64,000 nt of DNA from Paenibacillus sp. PL2-23 (GTDB taxonomy: Bacteria > Bacillota > Bacilli > Paenibacillales > Paenibacillaceae): positions 4,289,501 to 4,353,500 of the forward strand of contig NZ_CP162129.1 in assembly GCF_040834005.1 (NCBI RefSeq), in the 5' to 3' direction. Below the pieces are notes generated by a model that was given only the letters and a program-made list of their open reading frames with translations, made no database searches and was not told the origin of the DNA. Of this stretch, positions 4,927 through 63,757 are shown one piece after another (position 1 is the stretch's first letter; each line of letters begins with the position of its first letter). The position numbers and the translations under genes were made by a program.

Positions 4927-6489
4927 CTATTGCTTCGCCAAGAATGCGTCAATCTGGCTTTGCAGCTCAGCTTGAATTTTATCCAAGCCTGCTGCTTTCA
5001 GCTGCTTGTTGAGATCGGCGATACCTTTATCCAGATCACTGATCAAGCCGTACTCCAGCGGAATCGCGTAGCGCAGCATGACGTTGCCGACATTGGCCAC
5101 TTCAGACTTCACATTGCTGTTGTCGAAGACGAAGGTTTCGAGCGGATAGTGGTACACATTCGCTTCCCAGCTCTTCACGAGGTCAGACGCTTCCTGAGGG
5201 AACGCTTCGTTCGTCAGATTGAGCGGCGAGTTGAAGTTCCAGTTCGAGAAGCCCGTGAAGTTCTGCTGCTTGTCGGTCGCCGCGAATTTGTCTTCGCCAA
5301 CTGGCGTATAGTGTACGCCGTTAATGCCATACATCATCAGGTCATGAAGCTCTTTGTCGTTCTGGATCAGATCGATGAACATAAGCGAACGCTCGATGTT
5401 TTTGGAGGTCGCATGAATGGACGTTCCGTTCTGAGTCGAGATCGCAACGGATTTTTTCTTGCCTTGGTTAATATCCGCAAGCTTAACCTCGTACGGAGAG
5501 TTTTCCATACGCATCAGAGCCATCAAAGCGCCAAGCGTGCCGCTGTTATGCGTAATGGAAGCCGTTTTGCCCGCTTTGAAGTCCGTTTGATGATCGTTTT
5601 TGCTGTTCAAGACGTTTTTCGACCAGGCGTTGTTGTCTGCCAGATCCTTGTAATAGACGAGCAGGTCCTTGAACTCCGGCGTTTCGTATACGTTGAATAT
5701 TTTGCCCGCCGCATCCGTCAATTGAAAGGCAAACGGCATATCCAGGTCGAACATATTCCATTCGCTCTGCTGCTTGAGCAGGACGCGGTCGAGGTTATGG
5801 AACTTCCAGTCGCCCGTCTCCGGCGTAAATGGCACGACGCCTTTTTCGTTCGCGGCGATAGTCTTCAGATAAGTGGCATAAGACTCAGGGCTATTGATTT
5901 CAGGCAAATTATATTTCGTGCGCAGATCCTCGCGGTACAGGATCAGCTTCTCCACGGACTCCCCGCTATTCTGCGGAACCATGTACAGCTTGCCGTTCAC
6001 CTTCGCTTGATCCCAGCTCACCTGCTGCATCTTCTCCCAGGTTAATGGCGCATAAGTGGACAGCAGCTCATCGGTCAGCTCCAGGAAGCCGCCCTTCAGC
6101 GCTTGGTCGTTGTAGCCAGCCCAGTTCGCGGAGTAGATCAGGTCGAAATCTTCATTCGCCGCCAGCTTCAGCGGATACTTCTGAGCCCAGTCGGACCAGT
6201 CGAGGAATTCGCCTTCCACAGTAGCGTTAATTTTTTCTTTGAGCTTTTTGTTTATTTCCGCGAATACCAGATCGTAATCAACCGGCTTCGGACCAAGGAA
6301 GATCATCTTCAATACCACTTCCTTCGAGGTGTCGATGCCGCCAGTCGATTCGGATGTCTCAGAAGCTCCTGCGGTCGGAGACTCGCTAGTCGAGGACTCC
6401 GTACCTTTGTTGCCGCCGCTGCAAGCCGCCAATACGAAAACCATCATCATCGCAAGAGCTAGCATACTTAATTTCCATTTGTTGAGCAT
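4927..6489 (-). CDS. Extracellular sugar-binding lipoprotein (CUT1, LipO/LplA-like)
   Basis: The 520-aa precursor has a signal peptide ending in the lipobox VLAAC (Cys23), followed by a Gly/Ser/Thr-rich tether and a family 1 solute-binding fold. It would sit on the outer face of the membrane and deliver oligosaccharides to the two permeases encoded just upstream (94-nt gap). A GGGGGAAA ribosome site precedes the ATG. Its place beside a GH53 endo-galactanase and a dedicated sensor pair suggests galacto-oligosaccharides. That is inference; LplA-type proteins bind many sugars. Confidence 0.88.
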   Translation of the reverse strand: MLNKWKLSMLALAMMMVFVLAACSGGNKGTESSTSESPTAGASETSESTGGIDTSKEVVLKMIFLGPKPVDYDLVFAEINKKLKEKINATVEGEFLDWSDWAQKYPLKLAANEDFDLIYSANWAGYNDQALKGGFLELTDELLSTYAPLTWEKMQQVSWDQAKVNGKLYMVPQNSGESVEKLILYREDLRTKYNLPEINSPESYATYLKTIAANEKGVVPFTPETGDWKFHNLDRVLLKQQSEWNMFDLDMPFAFQLTDAAGKIFNVYETPEFKDLLVYYKDLADNNAWSKNVLNSKNDHQTDFKAGKTASITHNSGTLGALMALMRMENSPYEVKLADINQGKKKSVAISTQNGTSIHATSKNIERSLMFIDLIQNDKELHDLMMYGINGVHYTPVGEDKFAATDKQQNFTGFSNWNFNSPLNLTNEAFPQEASDLVKSWEANVYHYPLETFVFDNSNVKSEVANVGNVMLRYAIPLEYGLISDLDKGIADLNKQLKAAGLDKIQAELQSQIDAFLAKQ

Positions 6490-6582: not shown

Positions 6583-7515
6583 TCATCCTTTTACAGCACC
6601 AATCGTGAGGCCTTTGACAAAATAACGTTGAACCAGCGGATAAGCGAGCAGAATGGGACCGGTCGCGACGACCGTCATCGCCATCTTCAAGCTTTCGGTC
6701 GGAACGGCTGTCGTCACAACGGCCCCCGCGCCCATCATTGCCTTGCGCATGCCGTCCATATTGCCCAGCATCTTGTACAGGTAATACTGGAGCGGCATCA
6801 GCTTCTCGTCCGAGACGAACAGCAGCGCATTATACCAGTCGTTCCAATACGCCAGCGCCAGGAACAAGCCAATCGTTGCAAGCGCCGGCTTGGAGAGCGG
6901 CAGAATAAGCTGGGCATAGATTCGGAAGTCGCCGGCGCCATCAATCTTGGCCGATTCGACGATCGCTTCCGGGATGCTGCTCAGGAACGACTTCATCACG
7001 ATAATGTAGAAGACGTTCAAGAGCATCGGAATGATCAGCGCCAGCACGGTGTCCTTCATCTGCAGGTAATTCACGATAAGCAGATACCAAGGAACTAGCC
7101 CGCCGTTGAACAGCGTCGTGAAGAAAAAGAAAAACGAAAATTTGTTGCGCCACTTGAAGTCCTTGCGGGACAAGGCGTAAGCCGTCATCGAGGTCAGGAA
7201 CAGCCCGAAGAACGTGCCCGCCGCCGTAACGCCTATCGTTACCAGATAAGCATTGACCATCTGGTCGGGATATTTGAACAATATCTTGAACGCTTCCACT
7301 GAGAAATCCAGCGGGATAAACTGATAGCCGTCCATAATGATCTTATCCTCGCTCGTCATGGAAGACGATACGATCAGCACGAAGGGCAGCAGGCAGAGCA
7401 GCGCCAGCATCGTAAGCGCGATATAGCCGATGACCGAAAAGATGGCGCGATCCGTCTGCTTCACTCCCGTAGCTTTCGAGAACGCTGTATCTACATTCAT
7501 ATCCTGTGTACTCAT
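6583..7515 (-). CDS. Carbohydrate ABC permease, LplC/YtcP type
   Basis: A 310-aa protein with six predicted membrane helices. The cytoplasmic EAA loop is visible as ESAKIDGAGDFRIYAQLILPLSKPA, the contact for the ATPase. The C-terminus FVKGLTIGAVKG is typical of LplC-type subunits. An AGGAGG ribosome site lies 7 nt before the ATG. Together with the 7531-8451 permease it forms the channel of a CUT1 importer. No ATPase gene is present in the locus, so a shared MsmX-type ATPase is inferred. Confidence 0.88.
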   Translation of the reverse strand: MSTQDMNVDTAFSKATGVKQTDRAIFSVIGYIALTMLALLCLLPFVLIVSSSMTSEDKIIMDGYQFIPLDFSVEAFKILFKYPDQMVNAYLVTIGVTAAGTFFGLFLTSMTAYALSRKDFKWRNKFSFFFFFTTLFNGGLVPWYLLIVNYLQMKDTVLALIIPMLLNVFYIIVMKSFLSSIPEAIVESAKIDGAGDFRIYAQLILPLSKPALATIGLFLALAYWNDWYNALLFVSDEKLMPLQYYLYKMLGNMDGMRKAMMGAGAVVTTAVPTESLKMAMTVVATGPILLAYPLVQRYFVKGLTIGAVKG

Positions 7516-7530
7516 AATTCTACCTCCTGC

Positions 7531-8451
7531 TTAGAATAACGCTCGATCCCTGTCATACCGGCGAACGGCATAGTTGACGGCCATAATGGTAATGAAGCCA
7601 AGAACGGATTGGAATACCCCGGCAGCGGCCGACATTCCCATATCATTGGACATAATCAAGGAACGGAATACGAAGGTGTCGATAACATCCGTCGAAGAGA
7701 ATAACATGCCGTTGTTGCCGACCATGTTGTAGAACATTCCGAAATCTCCACGGAAGATGTTGCCTACCGCCAGCAGCACCAGAATGATCACCGTCGGGAA
7801 CAGATTCGGGATCGTCACCTTCATGATACGCTGGAAGATGTTCGCTCCGTCGATCTCCGCCGCCTCATACATCTCCGTATCGATGCTCGTGATAGCCGCC
7901 AGATACATGACCGTGCCATAGCCGAGGCTCTTCCAGGCGGATACCAGCACCAGCAGATAAGGCCAATAAGCCGGCGTATTGTAGATATCGACAGGCTCCA
8001 TGCCCAGACCTCGCAGCAGCACGTTTACGGTGCCGATATCGTAGTTCAGCAAATTGTAGGCAATCGCCCCTACAACAACCCATGAGATAAAGTAAGGCAG
8101 GAACAACGCGGATTGAATGATCTTGCGGAACCATTTGCCGCCAACCTCAAACAGCAGAATCGCAGCAACAATCTGCAGGGCGTTATTAATAACAATGAAC
8201 GCTATGTTGTAGAGCGCCGTATTCCGCGTCACCCGGTATGCGTCCCCGGAGTCGAAGAAGAAGCGGAAATTGTCGAATCCGTTCCACGGACTCCCGAATA
8301 CGCCCCCGGCATAATCGTAATGCTTGAAAGCCAGCACGATGCCCCCCATGGGAATGTAGGCAAACAGGACGTAGAACAATACCGCCGGCAGCAGCATGAT
8401 CAATAGAACCTTGTATTGCTTCAGATCTTTCCAGAATGCTTGTAATTTCAT
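7531..8451 (-). CDS. Carbohydrate ABC permease, LplB type
   Basis: A 306-aa six-helix permease with the EAA loop EMYEAAEIDGANIFQRIMKVTIPN. An ATG 15 nt upstream (8466) is in frame, but GGAGGGG ends 6 nt before the ATG at 8451, so the internal start is preferred. It is the first gene of the importer operon; the order LplB-LplC-binding protein is usual in Paenibacillus. The promoter with the 29-bp motif (8474-8541) lies upstream. Confidence 0.88.
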   Translation of the reverse strand: MKLQAFWKDLKQYKVLLIMLLPAVLFYVLFAYIPMGGIVLAFKHYDYAGGVFGSPWNGFDNFRFFFDSGDAYRVTRNTALYNIAFIVINNALQIVAAILLFEVGGKWFRKIIQSALFLPYFISWVVVGAIAYNLLNYDIGTVNVLLRGLGMEPVDIYNTPAYWPYLLVLVSAWKSLGYGTVMYLAAITSIDTEMYEAAEIDGANIFQRIMKVTIPNLFPTVIILVLLAVGNIFRGDFGMFYNMVGNNGMLFSSTDVIDTFVFRSLIMSNDMGMSAAAGVFQSVLGFITIMAVNYAVRRYDRDRALF

Positions 8452-8473
8452 CTCTGTCCCCTCCATGAATCCT

Positions 8474-8541
8474 ATTATACAAGCGGTTTCATTTCGGCAT
8501 AATTCAGCGGTTCAACTAAACCTTATACTAAATCAACGATT
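8474..8541 (-). promoter_or_regulatory. Importer promoter with 29-bp regulator motif
   Basis: On the minus strand a TATAAT box (8474-8479) precedes the lplB-type gene. Plus-strand coordinates 8513-8541 hold a 29-bp motif made of CAACTAAA, CTTATAC and TCAACGA blocks. The same motif (25 of 29 bases) lies upstream of the GH53 gene, with the same 33-nt distance to its -10. The -35 (TTATGC) is poor, which fits activator dependence. The paired CAAC elements about two helical turns apart suggest binding of the adjacent AraC-type response regulator (inference). Confidence 0.72.
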
Positions 8542-8558
8542 CGACAAAAATACAAAAA

Positions 8559-8610
8559 AACCGCTCCTTGCCGTGGGAGGATGTGGACCCCATTGGCGTT
8601 AGGAACGGTT
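8559..8610 (-). terminator. Terminator after response-regulator gene
   Basis: On the minus strand AACCGTTCCT pairs with AGGAGCGGTT across a long loop and is followed by TTTTTTTG. It lies about 25 nt after the stop of the response-regulator gene and ends the sensor/regulator transcript before the importer promoter. Confidence 0.75.
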
Positions 8611-8634
8611 GTTGACTGCCGAGCCGTCAAGCTC

Positions 8635-10200
8635 TCAGATCTTGCGCTTCTTGCGATATTCGCTAGGCGACATGTTCATATAGTCCTTGAATTGCCGGTT
8701 GAAATAAATGATGTTTTTATAGCCGACCTGCGCCGCGATCTCGTACACCTTCTTGGTGGGATCCTCCAGCAGCTGGCAGGCCCGCTGCATCCTGAGCTCG
8801 TTCAGAAAGTCGCTGAACAGCCTGTTCGTCTCCAGCTTGAACAGCTGGCCCAAGTAATTCGGCGTAAAGCCGAAATGCGCGGCCACCTCGCCCAGCGTGA
8901 TCTTGTGCTCCAGACGCTCCTTCACGTAATCGCTGATCTCGGCGATCAGCTTGCGCTTCTGTCTCTGCCGCTTCAGGTACAGCAGCTCGGACAGCTCGAA
9001 GAATCGCCGCCGCAGCCACGAGATAATATCCTGCACCGTCTCGAACTGAAACAGGACAAACGGCTGATGAGCGTCCCAGTTCAATATTTCGTACAGATGC
9101 TCGTTCATCTGGCGCAGATCCGCATGGAGCTTCGACGTGATCCGAATAATGAGATCGTAAATCTCGTTCTTCTGGATATCCCCCGTGAACAGCTGCATCA
9201 GACAATCGTCGATGACCGTCAGATTATACTCCAGCATTGCTTGCAGCATCCTATCGACGATTTCTTCGTGATTGGAGGCGATCTTCTCCTTAGGCTGCCA
9301 CTCCGAAGCATCCTGAATGAGCCTGTTTTTGCCCACCAGCCACTTGATGCTAAGCGCCGCCTGCGCTTGCCGGTACGAATCATGCAGCTTGTCGAACGCA
9401 TGGGTATACGTCCCCATTCCGATCGTTATCGAGAACGAGAAGGTGCGGTTGAACGCCTCAATCAGCTCCGAGAGCAGCGCGGAGAATGAGGCCTCCTGAA
9501 CGGCCGCAAGCACGACGAAATGATGATCATGCGTCGACATGATCGTACCGGCATGCCGCTCCTGCAGATACTCGCGAATGAAGCGAGCCGCATTGTCCAG
9601 CCACAGGCGTCGGTCCTCCTCAGTCGAATGGCGATTCCTCCAGGCGAGATCGTCAATCTCGATAATCGCCACCGCCGTTCCAAGCTGCAGCATCGGTTCA
9701 ATAAAGCCGTGAATATGCGGCTCTATGCCCACTGGCGCCGATTCGTTGAACCAGCGAAGCAGAAGCTCCTGGTTCACGAGCGACATCGTCTCCGTGATGG
9801 AGTGCGCCTGCCTTCTCTCCTGCTCGATCTTTCCGCACAAGCCTTGCAAAGTCTCCTCCAGCTCCCGATCCTCCACGGGCTTCAGCAGATAACCGTAAGC
9901 ATTCAGCTCAATGGCCTTCTTGGCGTAGCCGAACTCTTCGTGACCGCTAATAAAGACGATGTGGACGCCGGGATTCAGCTCCTTGGCCCGCTGGGCGAAC
10001 TCCATGCCGGACATGATGGGCATATTAATATCGGATAATAAAATATCGATTCGCTGCTGCTCCATCACCTTGAGCGCCGCAAAGCCGCTGGATGCCGTCT
10101 GAACGCTCGTGAAGCCTCGGAAGCCTGCCACCCGCCGTCTCAGCCATTCGAGATCGACCGCTTCATCATCCACCAGCAGCACGTTTACTTCATTAAGCAT
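8635..10200 (-). CDS. Response regulator with AraC DNA-binding domain (YesN-like)
   Basis: A 521-aa protein with a receiver domain (1-120; acidic pair D11/D12, phospho-acceptor D57 in LLSD, lysine in YGYLLKP), a long linker, and a C-terminal AraC double HTH ending GYKNIIYFNRQFKDYMNMSPSEYRK. An in-frame start further upstream exists, but AAGGAGA lies before the ATG at 10200, which overlaps the kinase gene by 8 nt. It is the output partner of the kinase encoded upstream and the natural candidate to bind the 29-bp motifs at 8513 and 13627. Confidence 0.9.
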   Translation of the reverse strand: MLNEVNVLLVDDEAVDLEWLRRRVAGFRGFTSVQTASSGFAALKVMEQQRIDILLSDINMPIMSGMEFAQRAKELNPGVHIVFISGHEEFGYAKKAIELNAYGYLLKPVEDRELEETLQGLCGKIEQERRQAHSITETMSLVNQELLLRWFNESAPVGIEPHIHGFIEPMLQLGTAVAIIEIDDLAWRNRHSTEEDRRLWLDNAARFIREYLQERHAGTIMSTHDHHFVVLAAVQEASFSALLSELIEAFNRTFSFSITIGMGTYTHAFDKLHDSYRQAQAALSIKWLVGKNRLIQDASEWQPKEKIASNHEEIVDRMLQAMLEYNLTVIDDCLMQLFTGDIQKNEIYDLIIRITSKLHADLRQMNEHLYEILNWDAHQPFVLFQFETVQDIISWLRRRFFELSELLYLKRQRQKRKLIAEISDYVKERLEHKITLGEVAAHFGFTPNYLGQLFKLETNRLFSDFLNELRMQRACQLLEDPTKKVYEIAAQVGYKNIIYFNRQFKDYMNMSPSEYRKKRKI

Positions 10201-11944
10201 GATTTGGCCTGTCTCCTTCATCTTGGTGAATGGGCATGGGATCGACCGGCAGAACAAGCTGCACGGTCGTTCCTGCGCCGTAGTGGCTGCCGATTTGAAT
10301 GCCGAAATCGCTGCCGTAGCTCAGCTTGACTCGCTCCTCTACGTTTCGCAGGCCATAACCGCCGCTCGGCGCCGCGCTGGCCCGCATCAGACGGAGCGTA
10401 TCGGGCCGCATGCCGATGCCGTTATCGATGATGCTCAGCTCGATTCGATCGCCCGCGCGCCTGCCGACAACCCGGATCGCAATCGTCTCTCCGAACCAGG
10501 CATGCTTGAATATATTTTCGACAAAGGGCTGCAGAATGAGCTTGATGACCGTCACCTGCAGAATCGAAGGATCAATGTCGTAATAGACCTGGAACGTATT
10601 GGCATACTTGACCCGCTGAATGTCCAGATAGGTCCTGACCTGCTCCAGCTCCTTCTCAATGGTGATGTAGACCCGGCCGTCATTGAGCGTAAGCCTGTAA
10701 AACCTGGAAAGCCCGTGCACCATGCGGGTCACCTTCTCGACCTCCCCCATATTGGCCAGGCTGCCGATCGTGGACAGCGTATTGTACAGGAAGTGGGGGT
10801 TGATCTGAGCCTGCAGCACGTCCAGCTCCGCCTGCTTCTTCTGGATGCCCTGCTCATACACATCCCGGATCAGCGTCTGGATGCTTTCGGCCATCTGGTT
10901 GAAGGCATTGGCAATGTACACAAATTCATCATTGCCCTGGAACCCGATCCGCTTGTGGAAGTTGCCCTCCTGGAACGATTGAATGAGCGTCACGATCCGT
11001 TTCATCTTTTTGCCGGACAAGCGGGCGACGAGAAGCCCGATCACCGCCATCACCAGAAAGCTGATCAGACAGACGGCGCCAATCGCTTGCTGCAGACGGC
11101 TGGCGTCCTTGTTCAGATACCGATGGGGCACCCAGGTCTCGATGGCATAGTTGGAGCCTGCGATCGCTTCGCTAATAATCAGATATTCCCCTTCGCGCGT
11201 TTCCTCGCTCACGGTGCCCCGCTCGTACAGCTTGGCCCCGGTTGCTTGGTCCATCAGGCGAAGGGCAATGCCTTGGTCGATCGGGAAGGAATCGAAGCTT
11301 CCCAGCAGCTCGTCAAGCCTGGCGGTTACGCGAATGTAGCCGATGAGCGATTGATCGCCGTTCGAGGCGAACAGCTTGCGGACATACGAGATATGCTCGA
11401 GCTCGCGGTCTGTCTCGATTTGACGCCACATTTTATCCTGATTAAGGGTCTGCATGGCCCTGAGCCAATCCGTATGCGACACGCTGCGGTAAGACAATAC
11501 ATAATAATCGCTGCGGCCGATCGGCTCCGACATGTCGTCGCCCGGGATCTCCAGCATCTCCTCGTTCATCGCATATAACGTCAATCGCAGCTTGTTCCCG
11601 TACAGTTGTAGAGGAGCTTTCATATAAGGCACGATATCGTCCTTCATCTTCAGCATGATCTCCCGCATATCTCCGCTGAACTGGAGCGCGTTCTGGAAGG
11701 TCGTATTGAGGAACAGCATATCGGTCATGCGCGTAATTTCTTCCGTCTGGTACTCCATGTTGCTGCGCGTCTGCTGCAGGGCAGTCCGTATGTTCGTCTC
11801 CGCCATCTCCGTGCGGGACTGCACCAGCATCGTATACGCGATATAGCCGATCAGCAGATCAGTCAGCAGCACCAGGACAAGATACGGAATCATCGTCTTG
11901 TACGTGAAGGGCATGTATTTCCTGCTCGCCAGCCATTTCACCAT
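10193..11944 (-). CDS. Sensor histidine kinase (YesM-like)
   Basis: A 583-aa membrane kinase with a helix near 15-35, a large extracellular sensor loop, a second helix near 285-305, a HAMP linker, the His_kinase motif QINPHFLYNTLSTIG and a C-terminal HATPase domain (DNGIGM, GYGLRNVEERV). It would sense an extracellular sugar and phosphorylate the co-encoded AraC-type regulator. Only 46 nt separate its start from the GH53 gene and no terminator was seen there, so both may share a transcript. AGAGGAGA precedes the ATG. Confidence 0.9.
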   Translation of the reverse strand: MVKWLASRKYMPFTYKTMIPYLVLVLLTDLLIGYIAYTMLVQSRTEMAETNIRTALQQTRSNMEYQTEEITRMTDMLFLNTTFQNALQFSGDMREIMLKMKDDIVPYMKAPLQLYGNKLRLTLYAMNEEMLEIPGDDMSEPIGRSDYYVLSYRSVSHTDWLRAMQTLNQDKMWRQIETDRELEHISYVRKLFASNGDQSLIGYIRVTARLDELLGSFDSFPIDQGIALRLMDQATGAKLYERGTVSEETREGEYLIISEAIAGSNYAIETWVPHRYLNKDASRLQQAIGAVCLISFLVMAVIGLLVARLSGKKMKRIVTLIQSFQEGNFHKRIGFQGNDEFVYIANAFNQMAESIQTLIRDVYEQGIQKKQAELDVLQAQINPHFLYNTLSTIGSLANMGEVEKVTRMVHGLSRFYRLTLNDGRVYITIEKELEQVRTYLDIQRVKYANTFQVYYDIDPSILQVTVIKLILQPFVENIFKHAWFGETIAIRVVGRRAGDRIELSIIDNGIGMRPDTLRLMRASAAPSGGYGLRNVEERVKLSYGSDFGIQIGSHYGAGTTVQLVLPVDPMPIHQDEGDRPNHA

Positions 11945-11990
11945 CGTTGTCTCCTCTTACGATCGCAGTTTGGGTACATGCCCCATTGTA

Positions 11991-13544
11991 TCAATTTTTA
12001 TAAAATTCTACATCATCCGCGTTCATCCAATTGCCCGCGTTGGCGTCGGTCCAGAAGCCGAACTCAGCCTGGCCGTTTGTGACATTAATGTTCGGGATCG
12101 TAATTTGCGTCCATGTGCTCGTCGTCGGGATCGAGACATATTGCTCGGCACCGCCAAAGTTCTTGACGAACATTCGGGCTGTAATGAAGCCGCCGCCGCT
12201 TTTGACCCATGCCTTCATCGTATAGGTGCCGTTCGCCAGCCCCGTCTTGATCTGATACGTGCTCACCTGGTAAGCCGTGCTTCTCCAATGCGACAAGCGG
12301 AAGCTCCCCGTATAGCCGCCTGCCTCCGAATAGTTGGCCGTTGGATTATTGTTGGACCACGTAGACCAGCCGGATGGGTCCTGCGAAGCGGCTCCTCCCG
12401 TCTCGAAGCCAGGGTTCGTAACGAGATTGCTGCCTTGCTGGGAACCGGCTGCGAAGGCATCGAGCGCGGTCGTAAACTTTAACACTTTCGTAGAAACAAC
12501 GCTAGTCGCACCCAGTGGATACTCATCCGGCAGAACGCTGGAATGAGCCGCCGGCTCCCAGTAGAACACACCCGTGCCTTTGCCGTTCGGAACGGCCTTC
12601 ACCGCTTGAATCGTATCGTAGATGGTCCAGTACGAGTCGGTCGGATTGGTCTCAAGGCCGCCTACCTCGACCACCATCACTTCCTTGCTGTAGCGCGCGG
12701 CCATGTCGTTAAGATTCGTCGACAATGCGCCAGTCAGCTGCCAATACGCCTGTCCCTCCCAGTAGGGATAAAACGACATGCCGATCACATCGGTTTTGCC
12801 GCTGTTCGCGAAGAAATTATCGAACCACCATCTGAAGAGCGAATTATCAGTCCCGTGCGCGAGGTGGGAGATGACCTTCGAGGAGGGGCTTACGGCTTTG
12901 ACCGCGTCGTAGCCCTTGTTCAGCAAGGCCGTCAGCTTGGCGAAGTTGTTGGTGCTTCCGCTAGGCAGCAATATGCCGGAATTCATCTCGTTGCCGACCT
13001 GCACCCAGTCCGGATATATATTGTTATTGGCCAGCGTAGTCATCACGTTGTACGTATGGGTGTAAACCGCATTCTGCAGCTGGGTATCGTTGTAGCTGTT
13101 CCATGCGGCCGGCTTGATCTGATGCCCTGGATCGGCAAATACGTCGCTGTAATGGAAGTCCACCATAATGCTCATGCCAAGCGCCTTGGCTCTTTGCGCT
13201 GCCGCAAGCACGCCGGCCGTATCGCTGTATCCCAGCATGGTCATCGTAACGCCGTCCTTCAGCCAATAATAATTGCTGGGCGGATTCACGAATACGCGGA
13301 GACGAACGGAATTAATGCCTTTATCCTTCATCAGCTGAAGCGGATCTGCCGCCTGATTGGCGCTGTTGACAAAGCTGACCCCTTCGTACTCCAGCTACTT
13401 GAGCCAGCCGATATCGGCGCCGTAAGCAAATGCCGGCGCTGCCGAAGCTGTGGGCGCAGGCCCAGCCAGATTGGACAGCACCGTAAATGTAAGCGCCATC
13501 ATTAGCATGTAAAGCGTCATCTTTCGGATTGATTGTTGAATCAT
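11991..13544 (-). pseudogene. GH53 endo-beta-1,4-galactanase with C-terminal CBM, interrupted by in-frame TAG
   Basis: Read from the ATG at 13544 (GGGAGG ribosome site) the frame gives a signal peptide (MIQQSIRKMTLYMLMMALTF, then a PTASAAP-like cleavage region) and the GH53 start YGADIGWLK. It then meets TAG at 13395-13397 (codon 50) and continues in the same frame LEYEGVSFVN. GH53 enzymes commonly have Gln at this place, so a CAG to TAG change is likely. The remaining 467 codons are intact, with acid/base Glu in VQVGNEMNS, nucleophile Glu in VMVVEVGG, and a 145-residue C-terminal beta-sandwich module resembling CBM61/CBM4. Restart at the next ATG (13331) would lose the signal peptide and first beta strand. 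Sequencing error or suppression remain possible. Confidence 0.85.
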
Positions 13545-13587
13545 TATAATACCTCCCGCATGTTTGTTGTGGGTTTGGCCCCTTTCT

Positions 13588-13655
13588 ATTGTAAAATTAG
13601 ACGCGCGCCGCCAATATTGAGCTAAGCAACTAAAACTTATACGAATTCAACGAAT
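13588..13655 (-). promoter_or_regulatory. GH53 promoter with 29-bp regulator motif
   Basis: On the minus strand TACAAT (13588-13593) lies 43 nt before the GH53 ATG. The 29-bp motif at 13627-13655 matches the importer motif at 25 of 29 bases and stands 33 nt from the -10, as in the importer promoter. The motif overlaps the last codons of the upstream germination gene. A good -35 is missing, as expected for an activated promoter. Confidence 0.72.
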
Positions 13656-20922: not shown

Positions 20923-22041
20923 ATGATCGTTACCGTGACGGCGAAAATCAAAATCAAACCGTCAGACAGTCAAATGATGGCCCTGCAACAAACGATGATC
21001 GCTTATCGTCAAGGCTGTAATTTTGTCTCTGCCCTTGTGTTTGAGACGAGCGAGCGCCGGCAGTCTGTCCTGCACCGAATGACGTATCGAACCCTGCGCA
21101 GCGCGATGGGCCTGCGTTCTCAAATGGCTCAGTCGGTATTGAAAACGGTACGGGCTAAATACAAGACCATCTTGAGCAGTGGGCATGCTTGGACTCTCGT
21201 ACAATTTAAGAAGCCGGAATACGATCTCGTCTGGAGACGGGATTACTCGCTAAGCGCAAAGCTATTCTCCGTCAATACGCTGCAAGGCCGCATTAAGATC
21301 CCCTTCGAAGCCAAAGGAATGGAGACCTATTTCGACGGCACATGGACATTCGGTACAGCCAAGCTGGTATGCAAAAAACAGAAGTGGTTTTTGCATATTC
21401 CAGTGTCTAAGGAAATGGCCTCTCCTGAGCTTAAGGAGATTGAACACGTTGCAGGGATTGATCTGGGCATCAACTTTGTAGCTACGGTGTATGACACCGA
21501 GGGGAGAACGCTGTTTTTTCGGGGAAGGGGACTGAAACACAAACGAGCCAACTACCAACGATTGCGTTCCGAGCTGCAACGCAAACAAACGGCTTCGTCC
21601 CGCGGCAGGCTGAAGCAAATCGGAGAACGAGAAAACCGCTGGATGACCGATGTGAACCATCAGGTAAGTAAGGCACTCGTTACCCGATATGGGGCGAATA
21701 CGCTGTTTGTGCTGGAGGATCTGACAGGGATCCGCCGCAGGGCGGAAAAGTCAAAGCTGAAGTATCGGTATGTGACGGTATCGTGGGCGTTCTATCAGCT
21801 GCGTCAGATGGTGACGTATAAGGCGAAGCTTGCAGGATCGATGGTGATAGCCGTGGATCCGAAGCACACTTCGCAAGCGTGTCCCCTATGCCGCCACACG
21901 GCCAAAGAAAACCGGGATAAACGCAGGCATCGCTTTCGTTGCCAGGCATGCGGATATGCAAGCAATGATGACCGGATCGGCGCCATGAATCTCTGTTTGA
22001 AGGGAAAAGAGTACCTTCTTGAAGGTGCAGGCTTAGCATGA
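20923..22041 (+). CDS. tnpB: RNA-guided nuclease TnpB (IS605 OrfB)
   Basis: The 372-aa protein has a complete RuvC triad: D180 (AGIDLGINF), E265 (FVLEDLTGI) and D350 (NDDRIGAMN). A zinc finger carries C320, C323, C340 and C343. All active-site residues are intact, so it may be catalytically competent. Family knowledge: TnpB is guided by an omega RNA from the element's right end and recognises a TAM equal to the left target, here predicted TTGAT. GAGGAGG precedes the ATG. Confidence 0.93.
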   Translation: MIVTVTAKIKIKPSDSQMMALQQTMIAYRQGCNFVSALVFETSERRQSVLHRMTYRTLRSAMGLRSQMAQSVLKTVRAKYKTILSSGHAWTLVQFKKPEYDLVWRRDYSLSAKLFSVNTLQGRIKIPFEAKGMETYFDGTWTFGTAKLVCKKQKWFLHIPVSKEMASPELKEIEHVAGIDLGINFVATVYDTEGRTLFFRGRGLKHKRANYQRLRSELQRKQTASSRGRLKQIGERENRWMTDVNHQVSKALVTRYGANTLFVLEDLTGIRRRAEKSKLKYRYVTVSWAFYQLRQMVTYKAKLAGSMVIAVDPKHTSQACPLCRHTAKENRDKRRHRFRCQACGYASNDDRIGAMNLCLKGKEYLLEGAGLA

Positions 22042-63277: not shown

Positions 63278-63516
63278 TCCTCAACGGCCCCTTTCGTCTT
63301 GTCCATCCTTTTATTATACACGGAAGTGGCACGCGACAAAAACGTCACTTTTACGTGCTGCTGCCACCTGCAGCCTTATAGCATTAAAACAAGCTTAACC
63401 AAACTCATGAATCAGCGCTCCAGCCCTGTCTATGCATCTTTATCTCTGATAGCCACACATGGGGCTGCTCAGCCCTCTCTATGCTCGATAGCCACAAATC
63501 TAACTCCCTCTATCCA
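63278..63516. other. Intergenic stretch with degenerate copies of the tandem repeat phrase
   Basis: No gene is recognised. The phrase GATAGCCACA recurs near 63450 and 63488, each time after CAGCCCT or CTCTATGCTC, like the junction region of the following 102-bp units. This suggests older, eroded repeat units. Confidence 0.45.
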
Positions 63517-63757
63517 ATAGCCACACGTCAGATCGTTGTTGAAGTAACTTCCTCTGTTTGGGCTGCGATAGCGATTCCTCATGTCGTTATGGTGCCGCAA
63601 CAGCCCTCACTATGCCCAATAGCCACACGTCAGATCGTTGTTGAAGTAATTTCCTCTGTTTGGGCTGCGATAGCGATTCCTCATGTCGTTATAATGCCGC
63701 AACAGCCCTCTCTAGCCCCGATAGCCACACGTCAGATCGTTGTTGAAGTAATTTGCT
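63517..63757. repeat. 102-bp tandem direct repeat, about 2.4 copies
   Basis: Two full units start at 63517 and 63619, and a partial third at 63721. Each begins ATAGCCACACGTCAGATCG and the period is 102 bp. Differences between units are few. A 92-aa frame across them (IVVEVxSSVWAAIAIPHVV repeats) reflects the 102-base period being a multiple of three and has no ribosome site, so a coding role is not supported. Confidence 0.8.

What the first reader, a model, noticed from the sequence alone, without database searches (positions are those of the whole stretch)
8513..13655. Conserved 29-bp motif at identical spacing in two promoters of the galactan locus
The motifs at 8513-8541 and 13627-13655 agree at 25 of 29 bases. 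Each lies exactly 33 nt upstream of its predicted -10 (TATAAT and TACAAT on the minus strand), and both promoters have poor -35 boxes. The flanking genes are an importer and a GH53 enzyme, and a YesN-type AraC response regulator is encoded between them. A direct-activation operator for that regulator is the simplest reading.
Basis: partly seen in the sequence, partly recalled or inferred. Interest (0 to 1): 0.72.

Follow-up and report, generated by a model that had tools for sequence, protein, structure and literature searches.

The report
Operator for a galactan-import regulator
Two copies of a short DNA element in front of a sugar importer and a galactan-cutting enzyme are very probably landing sites where a neighbouring sensor-controlled regulator switches these genes on; the same element, at the same distance from the promoter, recurs in related bacteria that carry that regulator.

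Summary
In detail: 25/29 identity, 33 nt from TATAAT and TACAAT, poor -35 boxes. The reading as an operator of the neighbouring YesN-type response regulator (RR) is strongly supported by comparative genomics; nothing was tested biochemically. A matrix built from relatives scores the two sites 42.5 and 36.5; next best in the window 5.1. In 51 congeneric genomes the pattern has 29 sites, reversed control 0. In 14 genomes not used to define it, 6 of 6 with an RR ortholog have it, 0 of 8 without. Over 392 genomes of the order, 58 of 60 with the strict motif carry an RR ortholog; 20 of 20 hand-picked RR carriers lacking the strict motif (of 57) have a variant before permease B, 33-34 nt from a -10. 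The conserved block is about 40 bp, not 29. Operators also precede GH53 genes, or an importer, on other contigs or 764 kb from the RR gene, implying action in trans. Here the second operator probably drives GH53-HK-RR (autoregulation), but the GH53 frame has a TAG at codon 50. Known kind of system; new motif and regulon.

The parts
8502..8541 (-). Operator 1 (importer): 29-bp block 8513-8541 plus conserved extension to 8502; half-sites CGTTGA and AGTTG 21 bp apart
8474..8479 (-). -10 element TATAAT, 33 nt downstream of the 29-bp block
13616..13655 (-). Operator 2 (GH53): 29-bp block 13627-13655 plus extension with the conserved T, C and AAT
13588..13593 (-). -10 element TACAAT, 33 nt downstream of the 29-bp block
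8635..10257 (-). YesN-type response regulator (receiver, GGDEF-like PF17853, AraC HTH_18); many relatives align only from about residue 20-25, so the true start is probably nearer 10200
10193..11944 (-). YesM-type sensor histidine kinase (HAMP, His_kinase PF06580, HATPase_c)
7531..8466 (-). ABC importer permease B; likely start ATG at 8451 given the -10 position (inference)
6583..7515 (-). ABC importer permease C
4927..6489 (-). Solute-binding protein (SBP_bac_1 + DUF3502)
11991..13544 (-). GH53 frame with signal-peptide-like start, interrupted by TAG at codon 50 (13395-13397)
8553..8610 (-). Predicted intrinsic terminator of the RR transcript, between RR and operator 1 (limits read by eye)
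   Evidence: the 95-nt stretch folds at -32.9 kcal/mol, z -3.05, long stem followed by a T run; not listed by the consensus scan, which allows loops of at most 8

Best explanation
Each site is an activating operator of the YesN-type response regulator encoded between them. The inferred sequence: a galacto-oligosaccharide cue activates the YesM-type kinase; the RR is phosphorylated; its AraC-type domains bind two half-sites 21 bp apart, the proximal one reaching to 22 bp from the -10 and abutting the weak -35; RNA polymerase is thereby recruited to the importer promoter and, in this strain, to the GH53 promoter. Shown: the motif, its rigid spacing, its extension, its co-occurrence with the RR, its position at importer and GH53 promoters, including sites not linked to the RR gene. 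Inferred: binding, phosphorylation, ligand, and the sign of control.
For: (1) Specificity: own genome 2 sites; next window score 5.1 against 42.5 and 36.5; order-wide 61 exact sites in 60 of 392 genomes, reversed control 0. (2) Co-occurrence with the RR: of the 37 genomes of this genus, 21 of 24 RR-positive (at least 50% identity) and 0 of 13 RR-negative have the pattern; in G007 and G014 the matching copy is the GH53 one, their importer copies being variants, and the 3 misses (G004, G012, G031) have variants at the importer. Held-out genomes 6/6 versus 0/8 (Fisher p 3.3e-4). In the order, 58 of 60 strict-motif genomes have an RR of at least 50% identity, against 57 of 332 without the strict motif; 20 of 20 hand-picked genomes of those 57 carry a variant operator before permease B, 33 or 34 nt from a -10. 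(3) Geometry: 39 of 42 pattern rows (38 of 40 distinct sites) at 33 or 34 nt; 29 of 29 further loci have their best -10-like hexamer at 33 nt. (4) Conservation at positions left free by the search pattern (A-27, T-26, T+2, C+6, AAT+9 to +11), with flanks at 0.17 and spacer at 0.20 bits. (5) Moves with targets: operator-importer-HK-RR order in G049; GH53 operators in G007, G064, G014, G269, G306 and an importer copy without a local RR in G007. (6) The RR has no close paralog in its genome (next by score 26% identity, 135 bits), and 29 other own-genome loci matching all or part of it lack the motif (best 6.6). (7) GH42, GH2, GH35 and GH53 genes near the cassette in relatives fit galactoside import.
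Against: No binding, expression or ligand data. Relatives are not independent, so Fisher values overstate. HK, RR and importer co-occur, so another co-inherited regulator is not formally excluded. The motif is not exclusive to this RR clade: cassettes with RRs of about 42-44% identity (G016, G068, G037, G008) have closely similar elements, so G016, counted as RR-negative, has a one-mismatch site. The GH53 operator in G014 (CGTAGA type) differs from its importer operator (CGGTGA type) although one RR ortholog was seen. Proposed residue-base covariation in the recognition helix failed. Only 3 of 30 GH53 loci fetched have their own operator. G041 (RR 65%) and the second cassette of G001 (RR 55%) score about 0 with the matrix, though degenerate elements lie 33 and 34 nt from a TATAAT there. 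In G269 no operator was found in the 6.3 kb fetched around the RR, which lies near a contig end.
Confidence: 0.88

Rival explanations
1. The element is the operator of another regulator that is inherited together with this cassette (an unlinked AraC-type or other factor), not of the RR.
For: The genome has many proteins with AraC-type or receiver domains (165 full or partial matches to the RR), and HK, RR and importer travel together, so co-occurrence alone cannot single out the RR.
Against: Adjacency to the RR gene in most genomes read; 21-bp direct repeat, as expected for two AraC-type domains; permeases of 62% and 59% identity in the RR-negative genomes G028 and G016 lack it.
Confidence: 0.07
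2. The RR binds here but represses.
For: Sign of control cannot be read from sequence alone.
Against: The site lies upstream of a poor -35 in fixed phase, the layout of activators; the C. bescii study places sites of three of five AraC-type two-component systems upstream of promoters and infers activation (PMC8579813, section 19); R. cellulolyticum CuaR, also AraC-type, recognises the region upstream of its importer gene and probably activates (PMC5663094, passages).
Confidence: 0.04
3. The element acts as RNA (attenuator, leader or processing site).
For: Lies in the intergenic region after the RR gene.
Against: It lies upstream of the -10, after a predicted terminator; RNA folding of both copies is no better than shuffles (z 0.21 and -0.68).
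Confidence: 0.01
4. The GH53 copy is a non-functional relic, since the enzyme frame is interrupted.
For: TAG at codon 50 in a one-contig genome.
Against: Operator 2 keeps the core and extension positions and scores 36.5; it may still serve HK-RR, which begins 46 nt after GH53 with no strong terminator between.
Confidence: 0.25

Closest known systems
AraC-family response regulators in Firmicutes polysaccharide loci (CuaSR, XydSR of Ruminiclostridium cellulolyticum; two-component regulators of Caldicellulosiruptor bescii)
   Same: HK plus AraC-type RR controlling sugar genes; CuaR recognises the region upstream of its importer gene; gel shifts with truncated XydR at target regions; tandem-repeat sites upstream of promoters for three of five C. 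bescii systems (passages and one section).
   Different: The passages read give no operator resembling this one; here the motif, its 33-nt phase and its spread over an order are resolved, without experiment.
AggR-dependent promoters of E. coli (AraC family)
   Same: Binding site at fixed distance from the -10, 22 bp optimal (PMC6392122, passages); here the conserved block ends 22 bp before the -10.
   Different: A single AggR site is enough there; here two half-sites 21 bp apart; the regulator here is a response regulator.
AraC at pBAD (araI1-I2)
   Same: Direct-repeat half-sites 21 bp apart abutting the -35 (recalled, no call).
   Different: Sugar binds AraC itself (recalled); here signalling is through a kinase.
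Bacillus subtilis gan operon with GanR
   Same: Plant-polysaccharide (galactan) operon ganSPQAB (PMC5472308, search listing only).
   Different: GanR is a LacI-type repressor (recalled); here a two-component activator.

Membership tests
YesMN-type two-component system | Receiver plus AraC-type HTH in the RR | tested here: met
   PF00072 2.3e-24, PF12833 2.1e-20, with PF17853; a solved YesN DNA-binding domain, 3lsg, matches at 1.5e-11
YesMN-type two-component system | Partner His_kinase/HAMP sensor encoded next door | tested here: met
   PF06580 1.4e-24, PF00672 1.6e-07; overlapping ORFs
YesMN-type two-component system | Phosphotransfer from HK to RR | not testable with these tools
   needs biochemistry
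AraC-type activating operator | Two direct-repeat half-sites about 21 bp apart | tested here: met
   CGTTG/AGTTG at 21 bp in both window sites and in relatives; the second conserved element of each half (GTAT; C..AAT) is not repeated in sequence
AraC-type activating operator | Fixed phase to the -10, next to a weak -35 | tested here: met
   33-34 nt in 39 of 42 rows, 33 nt in 29 of 29; poor -35 (and by eye)
AraC-type activating operator | Bound by the regulator; transcription depends on it | not testable with these tools
   no binding or expression data
Galactan utilisation regulon | Galactan or beta-galactoside enzymes linked to the importer | tested here: inconclusive
   GH42, GH2, GH35 and GH53 near the cassette in several relatives; but 5 of 33 RR-carrying genomes (G012, G021, G041, G057, G071) have no GH53 at E<=1e-20; the second cassette of G001 sits beside an alpha-rhamnosidase-type gene

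The most novel reading that the evidence does not exclude
This is a portable operator of about 40 bp for one clade of YesN-type RRs that has been placed repeatedly, sometimes far from the regulator gene, in front of new targets: GH53 in six genomes, a second solute-binding gene, a second importer, and the regulator's own gene in two other genera. In this strain its placement before GH53-HK-RR has turned a one-promoter circuit into a self-amplifying one, kept although the enzyme frame is interrupted.
Probability: 0.45. Interest if true: 0.55.

Novelty: new member of a known kind. Interest (0 to 1): 0.45.

Why it matters
YesN-like and AraC-like proteins are very numerous in these genomes, and their operators are rarely defined; the XydR paper of 2013 states that no consensus binding site for the AraC/XylS family could be identified (passage), and a pneumococcal survey found no clear repeat for its YesN (PMC11034029, section 17). 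Here one RR clade can be tied to a precise operator, with a rule (about 40 bp, 33-34 nt from the 29-bp block to the -10) that predicts its targets genome-wide and is easy to test. It also gives a natural series of operator variants paired with RR sequences.

Tried and rejected
One search used wrong gap lengths (0 hits) and was replaced. Searches translated GH53 in the wrong frame; one search is right. One search failed on its domain pattern; one search replaced it. Recognition-helix covariation (residue aligned by eye with MarA Arg46, contact recalled): Gln goes with CGTTGA (or a degenerate form in G041, G004), Thr/Ser with CGTAGA, Phe with CGGTGA in G014 and G031, but His goes with CGTTGA in G057 and G065 and with CGTAGA in G023, G062 and G064, and Phe with CGTTGA in G037; rejected as a code. 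Promoter and terminator consensus scans were near shuffle level (11 against 8.5 and 11 against 8.9). GH53 homologs in Bacillus suaedae (73%, L126) and Vibrio sinensis (68%, L127) have no operator in the 13 kb fetched around each (best 13 and 12 of 17 fixed positions). Paper searches for a prior description of this motif listed none that I recognised from titles and abstract starts; only open-licence papers are covered.

RR-negative congeners have no permease B homolog above 62% identity among the matches listed, so a clean test of importer ortholog without RR was not available.
Full report
OBSERVATION. With up to three mismatches the pattern occurs twice in the window and 0 times in 100 shuffles, and twice in the 5,484,239-base genome (reversed control 1). 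Ungapped direct pairs of 25/29 or better in the window number 6, against 0 in each of three Markov sequences; the other pairs are a tandem array near 63.5 kb and two unexamined pairs. Inside the motif lies a 21-bp direct repeat, CGTTG and AGTTG.

SURROUNDINGS. On the minus strand the order is spore-germination permease gene, operator 2, GH53, histidine kinase, YesN-type RR, terminator-like hairpin, operator 1, permease B, permease C, solute-binding protein. GH53 and HK are 46 nt apart with no strong terminator. The GH53 frame starts at 13544 and has a TAG at codon 50 (13395-13397), flagged also; the B. suaedae homolog has Gln there.

RELATIVES. RR orthologs of at least 50% identity were found in 23 of 36 congeners and in 3 of 23 other genomes of the order (G041, G057, G049). 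I fetched 33 loci. In the 27 with an RR of at least 50% (L033-L058, L062) HK, RR, permease B, permease C and solute-binding protein form one cassette, in G049 with the importer first; the other 6 are more distant. A match of at least 21/29 lies just before permease B in most; loci with no match at that level anywhere were L044, L061, L062 and L063. L044 shows a degenerate element exactly 33 nt from TATAAT, L062 one at 34, L063 one at 32 from TATCAT; L061 none. Spacing over 42 pattern rows was 33 nt in 33, 34 in 6, 27 in 2, 31 in 1 (the -10 was taken as the best TATAAT match between 26 and 40, ties to 33). Two sites are listed twice (L048/L090, L065/L089), so 38 of 40 distinct sites are at 33 or 34; the one at 31 (L047) may be a chance match.

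TESTS. A 29-column matrix from 22 distinct importer promoters, window excluded, gives the window sites 42.5 and 36.5, next best 5.1. In 51 congeneric genomes the pattern CGTWGA-n4-GTAT-n4-TTT-n-GTWG has 29 sites in 27 genomes, reversed control 0. Of the 37 genomes of this genus, 21 of 24 RR-positive and 0 of 13 RR-negative have it; the pattern was shaped on some of them, and in G007 and G014 the matching copy is at GH53, not at the importer. The 14 remaining genomes were held out: 6 of 6 RR-positive, 0 of 8 RR-negative, each of the six sites just 3' of the RR gene. In 392 genomes of the order, 61 exact CGTTGA sites occur in 60 genomes, control 0, and only the window's genome has two. Of these 60, 58 have an RR with at least 50% identity; G037 has one of 43%; G166 has HK and RR-like segments (61-62%) beside the site. 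29 loci not seen before were read: all 29 have their best -10-like hexamer at 33 nt; 25 have RR before and permease B after (in L213 the permease is only 36% identical), 4 have a solute-binding gene after. Of the 57 RR-positive genomes without the strict motif I hand-picked 20: all 20 have a variant operator (matrix 25 or more) before permease B, 33 nt (14) or 34 nt (6) from a hexamer matching TATAAT at 5 or 6 of 6.

EXTENT. In 51 anchored promoters chosen for a -10 at 33 nt, mean information is 0.17 bits upstream, 1.58 in the motif, 0.98 at +1 to +14, 0.20 in the spacer. The search expression fixed part of the motif and the -10, but A-27, T-26, T+2, C+6 and AAT+9 to +11 were free and are conserved. 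So the operator is about 40 bp and ends 22 bp before the -10, the distance reported as optimal for AggR.

TARGETS. Operators before GH53 genes: the window; G007, G064 and G014 (3 of the 30 GH53 loci fetched), with the enzyme frame opening 69-176 nt after the block; G269 and G306. In G007 and G064 they lie near the importer; in G014 and G269 on another contig than the RR, in G306 764 kb from it. In G007 a second importer copy with GH53 genes and no RR in the 14 kb fetched has an operator too (L268). Four genomes have one before an extra solute-binding gene (the full cassette was read in two of the four). In six of the 20 sampled loci (five of genus g21, one of g18) a second match lies between HK and RR, with a weak -10-like hexamer (4 of 6) at 33 nt, suggesting autoregulation. 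27 of the 30 GH53 loci have none of their own, though in several genomes GH53 follows the importer genes. Five of 33 RR-carrying genomes had no GH53, so galactan is probably not the only source of the imported sugar; GH42, GH2 and GH35 neighbours point to beta-galactosides.

MECHANISM. The best reading is direct activation by the phosphorylated RR from a site abutting a weak -35. Binding, phosphorylation, ligand and sign are inferred. In this strain operator 2 would also raise HK-RR expression. Why the interrupted GH53 keeps its promoter is open: recent loss, sequencing error or use by HK-RR.

LITERATURE. Comparable two-component systems are known. No listing in my searches described this motif; open-licence papers only.

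Noticed in passing
13395-13397: In-frame TAG at codon 50 of the GH53 gene in a one-contig genome; a 73% homolog in Bacillus suaedae has Gln there.
   Followed up: partly
13588-13593; L164, L171, L177, L261, L263: Five of the six operator-controlled GH53 promoters (window, G007, G064, G269, G306) have TACAAT as -10, G014 has TATAAT; importer promoters mostly have TATAAT.
   Followed up: partly
L241, L243, L244, L245, L246, L252: A second operator-like match between HK and RR genes, 33 nt before a weak -10, suggesting RR autoregulation in those lineages.
   Followed up: partly
L078, L187: G014's GH53 operator (CGTAGA type) differs from its importer operator (CGGTGA type) with one RR ortholog seen; possibly acquired from another lineage.
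   Followed up: no
L062, L063, L121, L064: Paralogous HK-RR-importer cassettes have related but altered elements (20-bp repeat, or CGTGGA...GTTT), one beside an alpha-rhamnosidase-type gene: a possible series of operator specificities.
   Followed up: partly
63504-63743: Direct repeats at a period of 102 nt near the window end.
   Followed up: no
7399-7427 and 11819-11847: Another direct pair of 26/29 identity, inside the permease C and histidine kinase ORFs by coordinates.
   Followed up: no
20923-22041: ORF resembling an IS200/IS605-type TnpB protein (judged by eye).
   Followed up: no
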